DNA of 45,588 nt, taken from positions 1 to 45,588 of the forward strand of contig JAJEBZ010000037.1 of the NCBI GenBank assembly GCA_022822275.1, given 5' to 3'. The stretch is from Candidatus Poribacteria bacterium (lineage in GTDB: Bacteria > Poribacteria > WGA-4E > WGA-3G). The position numbers and the translations under genes are program-made. The notes under the pieces were generated by a model, which was not told the DNA's origin, did not search any database, and was given only the letters and a program-made list of their open reading frames with translations. Shown one piece after another: positions 7,230 through 40,378 of the stretch; positions within the stretch are counted from its first letter, which is position 1; the number at the start of each line of letters is the position of its first letter.

Positions 7230-7336
7230 CAAAGTTATGAGTGTGTAAAGTTTTTGCACAGGACATATTTTTGCCCGTTTTTTGGCGTAGTGTAAACATC
7301 ATTTTGCATGCAATTTTTCGTTAGCTCAGATTCACC

Positions 7337-7380
7337 AAAACATACCACGTGGTATGAAATAACATACCGTGGTATGTTTT
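7337..7380 (+). repeat. Conserved double CATACC palindrome inside B1
   Basis: CATACCACGTGGTATG is a perfect 16-base palindrome, followed six bases later by CATACCGTGGTATG, with AAAA and TTTT flanks that pair as an outer stem. The same 44 bases occur unchanged in B2 at 40326-40369, although nearby sequence has diverged. It could be a dimeric protein-binding site or an RNA fold. Confidence 0.6.
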
Positions 7381-7389
7381 GAAAATTGG

Positions 7390-34144: not shown

Positions 34145-34205
34145 TTACAACAATTCAGTAGTGTAGGTGAAGCATGCCATCACCCAACTGAAAAGGAGAA
34201 AAACA

Positions 34206-34433
34206 ATGACAAACGAACGTCTAACGATTGAGGAAATGGAGCAGAAATATCCTGACGAATGGCTGCTTATTGTTGATTATGAAATCAGCGAAAATACCGA
34301 ACTACTATCAGGAAGACTCATCGCACATAGTAAATCCCGGAAGGAGATACGGGATATTTCAATGAACTACACAGGACGAGTTGCTGTGCATTCCACACGC
34401 AAAACGCCAGAGGGTGTAGGGTACCTCTTATAA
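34206..34433 (+). CDS. 75-residue DUF5678-like protein, copy without protease partner
   Basis: A small acidic protein (TNERLTIEEMEQKYPDEW then LLIVDYEISENTELLSGRLIAHS). The KYPDEW-LLIVD core and the following IAHSKSRKEI helix resemble DUF5678-type proteins. ATG 34206 is chosen because AAAAGGAG is just upstream; the longer frame beginning at 34167 lacks a site. It is a paralogue of the gene at 36035 along its whole length. Unlike that copy it is not followed by an aspartic protease but by the sulfatase, 113 bases on. Confidence 0.72.
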   Translation: MTNERLTIEEMEQKYPDEWLLIVDYEISENTELLSGRLIAHSKSRKEIRDISMNYTGRVAVHSTRKTPEGVGYLL

Positions 34434-34546: not shown

Positions 34547-35947
34547 ATGACAAACAAACCCAACATCGTTTATCTCCTTGCAGATCAGATCCGTGCTTGT
34601 TCACTGCCTGTTTATGGTGAAAAGCAGATTGATACACCACACATTGATCGGCTTGCACAAGAAGGTACAGTTTTCTCTAACGCAATTGCCACTGCACCTG
34701 TCTGCACACCTTATCGTTCCATGCTGCTCACAGGACGACACCCACAGACAACTGGACATCTCATCAACTTCGTCAATACCCGACACGATGAGATCGGAAT
34801 CGGTGATGTATTCAGTCGAAACGGTTATCGCACCGCGTGGGTCGGTAAGTGGCATCTGCACACAAGGTCATTCCCAGAAATCGGTGGACGTGATTATGTG
34901 CCTGAAGGACGTGACCGACTCGGATTCCAACACTGGCGGGGTTACAACTTTCATACAGATTATTTCAACGGCACAGTGAATCTGAACAATTGGAGAAACG
35001 AAAGATGGAAAGGATATGAAACTGACGCATTAAATAGATATGCCTTTCAGTTTATGGATAACATGGACGATGATATGCCATTTTGTCTGTTTATCTCTCC
35101 GCATCAAGCGCACTCCACACCTTATGACTTTGCACCGCAGAAATACTATGACCGCCTCCCCGAAAAACTACAACTACCTGAAAACGTTCCAGATAGGCAG
35201 CGAGAACAATCACTAAAAATCTACCGACACTATCTTGCTATGGTCTTAGCAGTAGACGATATGTTAGGGGAGTTGATGGACTATCTTGAGAAGACAGAAC
35301 GTGTTGAAAACACATTATTCGTTTTCGGTTCTGACCACGGCACGCAAGGTGGAGCACAAGGTATCAATTTCTGGGCAAAGAGAGAACCTTACGAGGACTC
35401 CATCAAAGTGCCACTTATTATGCGTTTACCAGGTGTTTTTGAAGGTAACCGTCTATGTGATACACTTACTTCACCTGTTGACCTATTCCCATCACTCTGC
35501 AGTTTGTGTGATATTCAAATACCGCGTACTGTGGAGGGTTATGATTTATCGACCTCTTGGCGAGGAGTAGCGGATGCATTTAAACAGGAAGCTGTCCTGA
35601 CGATGAACTTCGGTTCTACTTATGACTACCTTGTTGATGGCAACGAGTGGCGCGGTGTCCGCACAAAAACCCATAGTTACGCACGGTGGCTTAACGGCAA
35701 GCGGATGCTATACGACATAGTAGCAGACCCGCTGCAAATGAACAACTTGATTGACGATCCAAACGCAAAAACATTAGCAGATGAAATGGAGAACACCCTC
35801 CAAAATCTTATGGATACTCGAAACGACAAACTTCAACCTGCCACAAGCTACACGGATTGGTATGACGCACAACGTCGTATTGTCCGTAACGCACACGGTC
35901 CCCTCGGCGACCCCGAAGATGAACCTGATTGGTCGCTATTGAAATGA
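34547..35947 (+). CDS. Type I sulfatase
   Basis: A 466-residue arylsulfatase-type enzyme that removes sulfate esters, probably from sulfated polysaccharides. The formylglycine site is Cys53 in VCTPYRSMLLTGR (CxPxR, the Cys type). Other motifs are GKWHLH, HQAHSTPYD and GSDHGTQGG. The first metal motif reads LADQ in place of the usual ADDQ. No signal peptide is visible, so it may act in the cytoplasm. An anaerobic or aerobic formylglycine-generating enzyme must be encoded elsewhere. The last 100 bases of the gene recur at 39078-39177. Confidence 0.9.
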   Translation: MTNKPNIVYLLADQIRACSLPVYGEKQIDTPHIDRLAQEGTVFSNAIATAPVCTPYRSMLLTGRHPQTTGHLINFVNTRHDEIGIGDVFSRNGYRTAWVGKWHLHTRSFPEIGGRDYVPEGRDRLGFQHWRGYNFHTDYFNGTVNLNNWRNERWKGYETDALNRYAFQFMDNMDDDMPFCLFISPHQAHSTPYDFAPQKYYDRLPEKLQLPENVPDRQREQSLKIYRHYLAMVLAVDDMLGELMDYLEKTERVENTLFVFGSDHGTQGGAQGINFWAKREPYEDSIKVPLIMRLPGVFEGNRLCDTLTSPVDLFPSLCSLCDIQIPRTVEGYDLSTSWRGVADAFKQEAVLTMNFGSTYDYLVDGNEWRGVRTKTHSYARWLNGKRMLYDIVADPLQMNNLIDDPNAKTLADEMENTLQNLMDTRNDKLQPATSYTDWYDAQRRIVRNAHGPLGDPEDEPDWSLLK

Positions 35948-35977: not shown

Positions 35978-36034
35978 TTTATGGACTTTAGCAGGTACCG
36001 TGATATTGATATCTTCGCAAAGGAGGAAACATAA

Positions 36035-36262
36035 ATGTCAAACGAACGTATGACCTTTGAAGAGATGACTGAGAAATATCCTGATCAGTGGTTGTTTATC
36101 ATTGATTGTGAACACAGTGAAAATACTGAACTTTTGTCAGGGATTGTTTTTGCTCATAGTGAAGCGCGAGATGTTATTTATGAAGTCTCTGGACAATATA
36201 ATGGCAGTGCAGCGATTCGTTATACAGGTGAACTACCGGAAGGAATGCATTACTTACTGTAA
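36035..36262 (+). CDS. 75-residue DUF5678-like protein, protease-linked copy
   Basis: Paralogue of the gene at 34206 with the same length and layout: SNERMTFEEMTEKYPDQW, LFIIDCEHSENTELLSG, and the ending LPEGMHYLL. AAAGGAGG precedes the ATG. Its TAA overlaps the ATG of the aspartic protease gene by one base, so the two are coupled in translation. The small-acidic-protein plus retropepsin-like arrangement resembles a toxin-antitoxin or protease-inhibitor pair. That is inference. Confidence 0.75.
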   Translation: MSNERMTFEEMTEKYPDQWLFIIDCEHSENTELLSGIVFAHSEARDVIYEVSGQYNGSAAIRYTGELPEGMHYLL

Positions 36263-36660
36263 TGGGACATATTTCGTTTAATCCCTCACAAAGGTTAATC
36301 AGATTGCCGATCAAAGTTGAAAGTATCAATGGTGGCAAATACCGAGATTTGATTGTTGCTTTAGATACAGGATCATCGAACACCTCGATTCCAACAAAAA
36401 TTGCTTCAGATTTGGGATACGATCTCTCAAATCCAAAACAGGTAGTACTGCTTACCACAGGCAGCGGTATTTTACCTGCAAAAATCATAACCTTACGTAA
36501 ATTAACCGCAATTGGAGAATCTGTAAAAAATATTGATGTCGTATGCCACGACTTACCTTTTGGGTCAACTATTGATGGGGTATTAGGCTTAAATTTCTTA
36601 TCACATTTTGATCTAAACATTTCATTTTCCACTGGAACTATTGAACTCTACTCATACTAA
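36262..36660 (+). CDS. Retropepsin-like aspartic protease
   Basis: A 132-residue clan AA aspartic protease. The active-site motif is ALDTGSSNTSIP (Asp35-Thr-Gly), followed by the flap region (VVLLTTGSGI) and the late GVLGLNFLSHFDLNIS segment typical of the retroviral-like fold. Such single-domain proteases work as dimers. No signal peptide was seen, so it is cytosolic. It starts inside the stop codon of the 75-residue gene. Possible target: the partner protein or a cell protein under stress. Confidence 0.85.
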   Translation: MGHISFNPSQRLIRLPIKVESINGGKYRDLIVALDTGSSNTSIPTKIASDLGYDLSNPKQVVLLTTGSGILPAKIITLRKLTAIGESVKNIDVVCHDLPFGSTIDGVLGLNFLSHFDLNISFSTGTIELYSY

Positions 36661-36794
36661 CATAACGAAAACAATTCTCGAATAAAAACACTAACTTAAC
36701 TGACTTAACTCAAAGTATATTCAACCAACATAAACGGAGCAGACAACAAAAAACAGATAAACAGATTTGAAAATTAATTGGAGGAACAATTGCA

Positions 36795-38366
36795 GTGAGA
36801 ATTTTATCAATAATAGTGATAGTTTGTATCCTAATCAGTATAGGATGTAGCAATGAAAAATCGAATTACGATGCAGGCATAGCAGCTTATGAACGCGGAC
36901 ACTACGCAGTAGCTTTGTCCAATTTTGAGTCAAGAGCAATGGAAGGTGATCCTGTCGCGCAGTTCTGCCTTGGTTATATGTACAAACACGGTAAGGGCGT
37001 AAGGGCAAATGATGAAAAAGCGAAGGAATCCTATGAAAAGGCGGTAGATCAAGGTTATCCCCCCGCAATGAACAATCTTGCCCAAATGTATGATGATGGA
37101 TGGCTTGATTCTAAAGGCGAGGAAGTTGATCCAGATTTCAAGAAAGCTGAGGAATTGTGGGAACAAGCATCGAAAAAGGGTAATCCTATTGCACAAACCA
37201 ACCTCGGTTTCGTTTATTTGGCTTTATCTATTTTGCCGAATCTCGAAGAGTTCGAGGAACACTGGGGGTTTGAAAAAACTGATAGATTATTACGCCTTGA
37301 AAAAGCCGAGAAATTGTTGAAGGCAGCATCCCAAGAACTGCCTCGAGCGTTACACCTCCTTGGTGTAGTGTACCAGATAAAAGCTGATGAGGCAGCTAAC
37401 ACCGGAGACTTTGAATTAGCCAACGAATTGTATAAAATGCAGGAGAATTCATATAAAGCTGCAGATAACATTGCCGAAGCTAAAGAGAAAGCTGCGGGGA
37501 AAGAGGAAAAGGATATAAAAGGCTATGCGCCAGCACAAAACGATCTCGGATCAATGTACTACAACGGTGAGGGAGTAGCACAGGCTCTCACTGAAGATGC
37601 CAGATGGAAAGAAGCTTTTGATTGGTACGAAAAGGCAGCAGACCAAGATTTTGCTGCTTCACAAAGCTCTCTTGCCTTTATGTACTATCTTGGTCGTGGG
37701 GTGGACAAAAACCCTAAAAAAGCGATGGAACTATGGCAAAAGGCAGCAAAACAAAGATATGGACCCGCACAGAACGCACTAGCTATAATGTATAGAGAAT
37801 TAGCAAAGAACCCGACTTTGTTTAAACAGAACATCATAGATCGTTTTCTGGAGTATTCAAGAAAGGATGGTGAAAAGGATAAAAAGGTGACCGAACTGTA
37901 CCATGAAATGGCTTCACGGTGGTTTTTCCACGCAGCACAGCAAGGCGAAGCTATTGCACAAGTTAACCTCGGGCGAAATTTTGAGATGGGACGTTATGGC
38001 GTGCCTCAGGATGACTCGGAAGCATACTATTGGTACGGTTTAGCACTTAGATATCCGGACCCTTCTGACTCTCTGAATAGTGGAGAAATTATTTTAGGTG
38101 AAACACCTGTCGAGAACTTTGCTGACAAGGTAACTGAATGGCATGAAAGTGTTGGCAACCATCTTAATGAAGAACAAAAAAAAGAGATTCAAGGACGAGT
38201 TGATAACTGGAAACCTAAAGATGATTTCTATAAAACGGGCAAAACGGGCACAGGATTTTATATTCATAAAAACTACATTCTAACCAACGCGCATGTTGTA
38301 ACTAAAGATGATAAAATGAAGAATAAATACGACGAATTCCGTATTTATTCTTCATTTTATCATTGA
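36795..38366 (+). CDS. SEL1-repeat lipoprotein with start of a fused serine-protease domain (truncated by UGA)
   Basis: A 523-codon frame. The signal ends in a lipobox (LISIGC, Cys18), so it is probably a lipoprotein. SEL1-type TPR repeats follow: DPVAQFCLGYMYKHGKGV, YPPAMNNLAQMYDDG, YAPAQNDLGSMYYNGEGV and others, to about residue 430. A trypsin/DegP-like domain then begins: GTGFYIHKNYILTNAHVV with catalytic His500. The frame stops at TGA 38364-38366, directly after a 24-bp perfect inverted repeat. The rest of the protease lies in the same frame after the stop (next entry). GTG 36795 is used as start, with GGAGG 10 bases upstream. Confidence 0.8.
   Translation: MRILSIIVIVCILISIGCSNEKSNYDAGIAAYERGHYAVALSNFESRAMEGDPVAQFCLGYMYKHGKGVRANDEKAKESYEKAVDQGYPPAMNNLAQMYDDGWLDSKGEEVDPDFKKAEELWEQASKKGNPIAQTNLGFVYLALSILPNLEEFEEHWGFEKTDRLLRLEKAEKLLKAASQELPRALHLLGVVYQIKADEAANTGDFELANELYKMQENSYKAADNIAEAKEKAAGKEEKDIKGYAPAQNDLGSMYYNGEGVAQALTEDARWKEAFDWYEKAADQDFAASQSSLAFMYYLGRGVDKNPKKAMELWQKAAKQRYGPAQNALAIMYRELAKNPTLFKQNIIDRFLEYSRKDGEKDKKVTELYHEMASRWFFHAAQQGEAIAQVNLGRNFEMGRYGVPQDDSEAYYWYGLALRYPDPSDSLNSGEIILGETPVENFADKVTEWHESVGNHLNEEQKKEIQGRVDNWKPKDDFYKTGKTGTGFYIHKNYILTNAHVVTKDDKMKNKYDEFRIYSSFYH
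38308..38363. repeat. Perfect 24-bp inverted repeat inside the protease coding region
   Basis: Arms 38308-38331 and 38340-38363 are exact complements around an 8-base loop ACGAATTC. The right arm ends one base before the in-frame TGA. Both arms are AT-rich and code for charged residues (MKNKYDEFRIYSS). This is far longer than chance pairing in coding sequence. Confidence 0.9.
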
Positions 38367-38987
38367 CGCGTGGAATTGATTGCCTGGGATCCAGACATTG
38401 ACTTGGCACTTTTGTATGACGAACGTGGAAATACGAATACTGCAACGTTCAGAAACACTCCTATTTATATGGGAGAAGAAATAGTTTCGTTTGGATATCC
38501 ACTGAGCGTTTGGTTATCTTACGAGGGCAACCGCACAGAGGGTACTGTCAGCGGCCCCTTTGGAACGCTGGAAGGGAATCTTTATTCTGATCCCGAAAAT
38601 TACTTTCAACATACTGCACCAATCCAAAAGGGCAACAGTGGCGGTCCTATGTTTGATCTTATGGGGTATGTGGTTGGAGTCACCACATATAAGATAAAAA
38701 ATCAATATGCCCAAAACGTTAATTTCGCCATCAAATTTGATGTCATTAAAGAGTTTCTCCGAAAAAATGGTTTCAAAAAGGATTCAAAAAATTCTATTGA
38801 GAAAGAGAAAATTTACAAAGTTCTTGATATTTCAAAAAATAGTCTTTCCGACCAAGTGAATGTATCAGAGAAGGCTGAAAAATTTACGGTGCCCGTGTTA
38901 AGCTTCAAGAACAAAGATGAGAAAGTTTTTGAAACTGATTATGGCACTAAGGATATCGGAATTCATAATCTGAACGGTGAGCATTAG
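38367..38987 (+). pseudogene. Remainder of the serine-protease domain, cut off by in-frame UGA
   Basis: This continues the frame of the preceding gene without any shift. It supplies the other two triad residues: Asp in WDPDIDLALLY (codon 536 of the joined frame) and Ser in QKGNSGGPMF (codon 615). Together with His500 this makes a complete DegP/trypsin-like protease. A GTG at 38370 could act as a restart, but no ribosome site is visible before it (the upstream bases are the hairpin). Either the gene is broken by one nonsense change, or the UGA is read through. The last 60 residues are polar and of unknown role. Confidence 0.7.
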
Positions 38988-39077
38988 CGGAAATATTATC
39001 TGCCGCAACCGACCTGCCTATTTCTCAAACATTATGCGTTCGTTATGTGTGATTCGTTTGCGTGCTGTTCCCGTAAA

Positions 39078-39177
39078 CTACAGGGATTGGTATGACGCAC
39101 AACGTCGTATCGTCCGTAACGCACACGGTCCCCTCGGCGACCCCGAAGATGAACCTGATTGGTCGCTCTTGAAATGA
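39078..39177 (+). pseudogene. Duplicated 3' end of the sulfatase gene
   Basis: 100 bases match 35848-35947 with three differences, in the same frame, ending at the same TGA. They encode YRDWYDAQRRIVRNAH... to WSLLK, the exact sulfatase C terminus. Two of the three differences are silent. Upstream of 39078 there is no similarity to the sulfatase. This is a fragment of a second sulfatase copy whose body has been lost. Confidence 0.85.
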
Positions 39178-40138: not shown

Positions 40139-40325
40139 TGTGTTCCTCCGATTTTATTGTGTGTAACTTTTTTGTGCAACAATATATTAGCAAAATCCAA
40201 AAATTGATACAATAAGATTATAGGGGTGAGGTGTGTAAAGTTTTTGGACACTATATATTTTTGTTCGTTTTTTTGCGCTGCTTAAATAGAATTATGCATG
40301 CAATTTTCGTTATCTCAGACTCTCC

Positions 40326-40369
40326 AAAACATACCACGTGGTATGAAATAACATACCGTGGTATGTTTT
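40326..40369 (+). repeat. Conserved double CATACC palindrome inside B2
   Basis: The same 44 bases as at 7337-7380, with no difference seen: CATACCACGTGGTATG, six bases, CATACCGTGGTATG, with pairing AAAA/TTTT flanks. Confidence 0.6.
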
Positions 40370-40378
40370 GGAAATTGG

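What the first reader, a model, noticed from the sequence alone, without database searches (positions are those of the whole stretch)
38308..38366. A 24-bp perfect palindrome followed by an in-frame UGA splits a SEL1-repeat/serine-protease fusion
The frame before and after the UGA is the same, and the catalytic triad (His500, Asp536, Ser615) is complete only when the stop is bridged. Exact complementarity over 24 bases with an 8-base loop is unexpected in coding DNA, and the stop is the next codon. Options: a template-switch (quasipalindrome) mutation that made the arms identical and created the stop; UGA read-through controlled by the hairpin; or an amplification or assembly artefact, which single-cell or metagenome data are prone to.
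Basis: partly seen in the sequence, partly recalled or inferred. Interest (0 to 1): 0.7.

Follow-up and report, generated by a model that had tools for sequence, protein, structure and literature searches.

The report
Copying-error hairpin breaks a protease gene
In one sponge-associated type of bacterium (candidate phylum Poribacteria), a known kind of DNA-copying slip appears to have written a short stretch of a gene backwards next to itself, making a perfect hairpin ending at a stop codon that cuts a protease gene in two; it is a tidy example of a known mutation, not a new control system.

Summary
Two 24-nt arms (38308-38331, 38340-38363) are perfectly complementary around an 8-nt loop. TGA (38364-38366) follows at once, and the frame continues unbroken from 36795 to 38987. 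The gene is a Sel1-repeat lipoprotein-like protein fused to a trypsin-like protease (His500/Asp536/Ser615). Codon shuffles of the gene never gave an arm longer than 11.

Comparison with relatives settles the direction. All 12 homologous genes in 10 other genomes of the same family are single open frames. They keep the left arm and, where it can be aligned, a motif such as DEFRI-PYR-RVELIAW. Only the right arm is new: "PYR" is replaced by "YSSFYH*", the left arm copied backwards. A 6-nt inverted seed (AATACG/CGTATT) lies at the junction.

[quoted passage not shown] The stop is one extra C-to-T type change exactly at the return junction, opposite G38307. The downstream half shows no extra decay, so the lesion is young, or else a library artefact; raw reads are needed to tell.

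Programmed read-through or selenocysteine is unlikely, although the genome has tRNA-Sec and SelA: the hairpin is on the wrong side of the UGA and relatives lack Cys there. Known kind of mutation; low to modest interest.

The parts
36795..38366 (+). 5' part of the gene: lipoprotein-like N terminus (LSIGC-type), Sel1 repeats, protease start with catalytic His500; ends at the premature TGA (523 aa)
   Evidence: homologs of the same genus and family continue past this point
38308..38331 (+). left arm, ancestral and the source of the copy (colinear with homologs)
   Evidence: 47/54 identity to G016 through CGTATT
38332..38339 (+). loop ACGAATTC
38340..38345 (+). CGTATT, native bases complementary to AATACG 38326-38331: the 6-nt seed at which the switch probably began
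   Evidence: CGT ATT conserved in G016 and G024; seed shown
38346..38363 (+). derived segment TATTCTTCATTTTATCAT, the reverse complement of 38308-38325, replacing the codons for PYR of the homologs (net about +12 nt)
   Evidence: elsewhere in the genome only 2-mismatch matches
38364..38366 (+). in-frame TGA at the return junction; T38364 lies opposite G38307; the nearest homologs have Arg codons here
38367..38987 (+). 3' part of the gene: rest of the trypsin-like domain with Asp536 and Ser615, and the C-terminal TVPV segment, open for 206 codons

Best explanation
A short-range template-switch (quasipalindrome) mutation in an accessory Sel1-repeat/trypsin-like protease gene of a Poribacteria genome. 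Shown: the left arm and both flanks are ancestral, and the right arm is a reverse-complement copy of the left arm that replaces the conserved PYR codons. Inferred: during replication the new strand, having just copied CGTATT, folded back on its own AATACG just upstream (or switched to the other template strand), copied 18-19 bases backwards, then returned to the original template at the arginine codon, giving a net insertion of about 12 nt in frame. A single C-to-T type change at the return junction, made during the switch (T opposite G) or later, turned that codon into UGA. The product is a 523-aa Sel1 lipoprotein-like fragment without Asp and Ser of the triad, i.e. a dead protease. The downstream half has not yet decayed, so the lesion is young or a population variant caught in the assembly.
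For: All 12 homologous genes in 10 other genomes of the family are uninterrupted, and so are 14 distant homologs between His and Ser. The nearest, in G016, reads TKDDDMKYEFDEFRI-PYR-RVELIAW against TKDDKMKNKYDEFRI-YSSFYH*-RVELIAW. Identity to G016 is 47/54 on the left flank and 23/27 on the right, but the new 18 nt match G016 only 9/18 on the same strand and 13/18 in reverse complement. The chance that 18 given bases match the reverse complement of the neighbouring arm is about 2e-10. A 6-nt inverted seed lies at the entry point. The arm sequence occurs nowhere else in the genome with fewer than 2 mismatches, so it is not a dispersed element. dN/dS against G016 is about 0.53 before and 0.44 after the stop, and relative rates do not differ (Fisher p 0.44): no decay of the downstream half. 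The mechanism is established in E. coli (PMC7202029) and described by the four-point model (PMC7954356).
Against: One genome only, a fragmented assembly (320 contigs) without reads, so an artefact with the same signature is possible. The exact pre-event sequence is inferred from a relative about 63-70% identical in protein. The stop needs one base that faithful copying would not give.
Confidence: 0.77

Rival explanations
1. Artefact: a snap-back or chimeric molecule made during amplification or library preparation, or low-coverage assembly, produced the inverted copy; the living cells have an intact gene.
For: The signature of self-primed synthesis in vitro is the same as in vivo; inverted-repeat chimeric reads made in library preparation are documented for nanopore ligation libraries (PMC13141652, abstract). 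The downstream half shows no decay, as expected if the gene is really intact. No second assembly of this species was available.
Against: The consensus at the site would have to come mainly from artefactual molecules. The arms (24 nt) are short for trapping an assembler (inference). No other perfect hairpin in a long open frame in 245 kb of the same assembly, so the library is not generally prone to it.
Confidence: 0.15
2. Programmed UGA read-through or selenocysteine insertion governed by the hairpin, giving two protein forms.
For: The genome has a tRNA-Sec above the Rfam cut-off (78.5 bits) and SelA (E 8e-163); the hairpin RNA is very stable (z -7.3); the frame is the same on both sides and the downstream half is not decayed.
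Against: Bacterial SECIS elements lie immediately downstream of the UGA (PMC1088965), but this hairpin is upstream and the 47 nt from the UGA on fold no better than shuffles (z +0.4). Sec sites nearly always have Cys in homologs (same paper); here Arg or another non-Cys residue stands at the site. No homolog has a stop here.
Confidence: 0.03
3. A split gene in use: the truncated Sel1 protein works alone, and the protease half is restarted at GTG 38370, three bases after the stop.
For: A GTG lies at 38370; the downstream half is as constrained as the upstream half.
Against: Read by eye, no ribosome-binding site precedes GTG 38370 (inference); the second product would lack catalytic His and any signal sequence; no relative is split here.
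Confidence: 0.04
4. Insertion of a small palindromic mobile element inside the gene, as with Rickettsia palindromic elements.
For: A perfect hairpin inside a coding region.
Against: The left arm is native coding sequence shared with homologs; the arm sequence has no other close copy in the genome.
Confidence: 0.01

Closest known systems
Quasipalindrome-associated template-switch mutation (Ripley 1982; E. coli lacZ reporters and thyA hot spot, PMC7202029)
   Same: A short imperfect inverted repeat becomes a long perfect one by copying one arm into the other.
   Different: Here the copied tract extends about 18 nt beyond a 6-nt seed, replacing native codons and adding about 12 nt; classical hot spots correct only a few mismatches (own knowledge).
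Short-range template switches, four-point model (PMC7954356), and hairpin creation by them (PMC8794818)
   Same: Three aligned fragments L->1, 2->3 (reverse complement), 4->R explain the change; one event creates a perfect stem.
   Different: Those surveys treat great apes and RNA genes; this is a bacterial protein gene, and one junction base departs from the copy.
Bacterial selenoprotein gene with SECIS
   Same: In-frame UGA and a stable hairpin in coding RNA; Sec machinery present in this genome.
   Different: Hairpin upstream, none downstream; no Sec/Cys pairing in homologs.
Rickettsia palindromic elements (own knowledge)
   Same: Palindrome within a gene.
   Different: No other copies in the genome; one arm is native sequence.

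Membership tests
Template-switch (quasipalindrome) mutation | Derived tract is the reverse complement of a nearby native tract | tested here: met
   38346-38363 = reverse complement of 38308-38325; homologs show the left arm is native and the right one derived
Template-switch (quasipalindrome) mutation | Flanks on both sides remain colinear with the ancestor | tested here: met
   47/54 and 23/27 identity to G016 on the left and right flank
Template-switch (quasipalindrome) mutation | Pre-existing short inverted seed at the switch point | tested here: inconclusive
   AATACG/CGTATT present now; CGTATT conserved in G016 and G024, but AATACG differs in G016 (TTC for TAC), so its presence before the event is inferred
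Template-switch (quasipalindrome) mutation | A real mutation in the cell, not made in vitro | not testable with these tools
   no reads and no second assembly of the species
Bacterial selenoprotein (SECIS-directed UGA) | Stem-loop immediately downstream of UGA | tested here: not met
   z +0.4 for 38364-38410; the hairpin lies upstream
Bacterial selenoprotein (SECIS-directed UGA) | Cys (or Sec) at this position in homologs | tested here: not met
   Arg or another non-Cys residue in relatives; none has UGA
Bacterial selenoprotein (SECIS-directed UGA) | Sec machinery in the genome | tested here: met
   tRNA-Sec, SelA
Palindromic mobile element (RPE-like) | Multiple copies in the genome | tested here: not met
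   only 2-mismatch matches of the 18-mer elsewhere; no DNA match to the region beyond itself
Trypsin-like (Trypsin_2) serine protease with Sel1 repeats | His-Asp-Ser triad in one chain | tested here: not met
   triad complete only across the stop; met in the relatives

The most novel reading that the evidence does not exclude
The hairpin with its UGA is a recent switch that lets the cell make both a Sel1-only lipoprotein and, by leaky UGA read-through, a little full-length protease, kept by selection in this lineage.
Probability: 0.03. Interest if true: 0.6.

Novelty: new member of a known kind. Interest (0 to 1): 0.22.

Why it matters
If real, it is a clean natural example, in an uncultured bacterial phylum, of one replication slip rewriting a coding stretch and making a long perfect hairpin at one stroke; such cases are easily misread as regulatory hairpins or read-through sites. 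It also warns that a single metagenome-assembled genome cannot separate this from an in vitro snap-back artefact.

Tried and rejected
Selenocysteine: the machinery is present, but the hairpin is on the wrong side, there is no downstream stem and no Cys homologs; rejected. Alternative genetic code: TGA ends 7 of 30 long open frames in the window and relatives have no TGA here; rejected. Dispersed palindromic element: no other copies. Rfam: only sub-threshold chance matches, mostly microRNA-type, to a perfect hairpin. Two genes fused by chance: relatives have one gene. Relaxed selection after the stop: not detected, but power is low at this divergence. The genome-contig scan gave only other Poribacteria and distant proteases, no second copy of this species (its own records may be left out there).

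Full report
Observation. The 24-nt perfect inverted repeat with an 8-nt loop and the adjacent TGA are in the sequence exactly as described. The open frame from GTG 36795 ends at 38366 and resumes in the same frame to 38987. Upstream are Sel1 repeats, downstream the rest of a trypsin-like domain. His500, Asp536 and Ser615 (invariant in the family alignment) confirm the split triad. The repeat is far beyond chance: codon-shuffled versions of the gene reach 11 nt at most (300 shuffles), and the expectation for 4.5 Mb is about 1e-6. In 618 kb sampled from this genome and two congeners, 28 perfect short-loop repeats of >=14 nt were found; this is the only one inside a long open frame.

Where it is. 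The window is contig 50 of a 4.53-Mb, 320-contig assembly. Homologous records in relatives are Candidatus Poribacteria metagenome-assembled genomes, among them contigs with the same lengths as those of the congeners searched here, so the window very probably belongs to that phylum. That the host is a sponge is general knowledge about the phylum, not shown here.

Comparison. Of 58 genomes searched in the family (the window's own included), ten others carry 12 homologous genes, all single uninterrupted frames. The nearest (G016, 756-codon open frame) reads NAHVVTKDDDMKYEFDEFRI-PYR-RVELIAWDSDVDLALL; the window reads NAHVVTKDDKMKNKYDEFRI-YSSFYH*-RVELIAWDPDIDLALL. Codon by codon the left arm, the loop and CGTATT align without gaps to G016 (47/54 bases), and the sequence from CGCGTGG on aligns again (23/27). 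The 18 bases between are unlike G016 on the same strand (9/18) but resemble its reverse complement (13/18) and are exactly the reverse complement of the window's own left arm. So the left arm is ancestral, the right arm is derived, and the change replaced three codons with seven (net +12 nt).

Mechanism. [quoted passage not shown] In four-point notation (PMC7954356): point 1 at or before 38345, point 2 at 38325, point 3 at 38308 or 38307, point 4 at the native codon now at 38364-38366. The strand just made ended in CGTATT, complementary to AATACG 38326-38331, so it could fold back with an 8-base loop and prime on itself; in E. coli such use of the nascent strand as template is established (PMC7202029). 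Creation of long perfect stems by one such event has been argued for RNA genes (PMC8794818). These steps are inferred; the footprint is shown.

The stop. Faithful copying of G38307, or return to a native arginine codon (CGA in G001, CGG in four others), would place C at 38364. The window has T, which stands opposite G38307 (the RNA fold pairs them as G-U). The stop therefore needs one more C-to-T type change exactly at the return junction. A misincorporation during the switch would explain the coincidence; a later transition is equally compatible. So 'the switch created the stop' is plausible but not shown.

Consequence. As assembled, the gene makes a Sel1-repeat lipoprotein-like fragment of 523 aa without two of the three catalytic residues. 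Divergence from G016 gives dN/dS of about 0.53 before and 0.44 after the stop, and lineage-specific changes are not enriched after the stop (Fisher p 0.44). The downstream half has not decayed: the lesion is young, is polymorphic, or is not present in the living cells.

Rivals. Artefact: in vitro snap-back would leave the same footprint, and no reads are available; the rest of the assembly sample shows no comparable coding hairpins. I give it 0.15. Selenocysteine or programmed read-through: the genome does have tRNA-Sec and SelA, but bacterial SECIS elements lie immediately downstream of the UGA and Sec normally pairs with Cys in homologs (PMC1088965); here the hairpin is upstream, the downstream RNA folds no better than shuffles, and homologs have Arg or other non-Cys residues. 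A dispersed palindromic element is excluded by lack of copies and by the native left arm.

Verdict. A clean, probably real instance of a known mutation type, with a truncated accessory gene as the result. New member of a known kind; low to modest interest.

Noticed in passing
window 39075-39177 and 35845-35947: The last 103 bp of the conserved sulfatase gene (34547-35947) are repeated at about 96% identity after the Sel1/protease gene, as an orphan tail. The sulfatase is present in 17 of 18 genomes of the genus at about 84-94% identity, while the Sel1/protease gene is accessory and sits by the same sulfatase in G016 and G001, suggesting an insertion hot spot with target-end duplication.
   Followed up: partly
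window 34167-34433 and 36034-36261: Two paralogous short ORFs (MTNERLTIEEMEQKYPD.. and MSNERMTFEEMTEKYPD..), the second followed by a retropepsin-like aspartyl protease ORF (36262-36660); DNA of this block recurs around the sulfatase locus across the genus.
   Followed up: partly
window 36759-36762: Many congeners share similarity that stops at 36759, and the Sel1/protease block of G016 and G015 begins at 36762: a sharp common boundary, as expected of a cassette edge.
   Followed up: no
window 40323-40372, 7336-7381; L060 207-254; L047 6853-6898: A recurrent hairpin outside long open frames (AAAACATACCACGTGGTATG..CATACCGTGGTATGTTTT) present in several copies; other families are TGTAGCACAAACTTTTAGTTTG and AGTCCCGTAGGGACG hairpins.
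   Followed up: no
L117 (G000:C63:2820-2909) and L125 (G000:C110:6145-7242): tRNA-Sec and SelA are present: this Poribacteria genome appears to encode selenocysteine insertion.
   Followed up: no
L145 (G008:C31) and L146/L147 (G007:C144): The otherwise conserved sulfatase has an in-frame TAA in G008 and is split between two frames with a TGA in G007.
   Followed up: no
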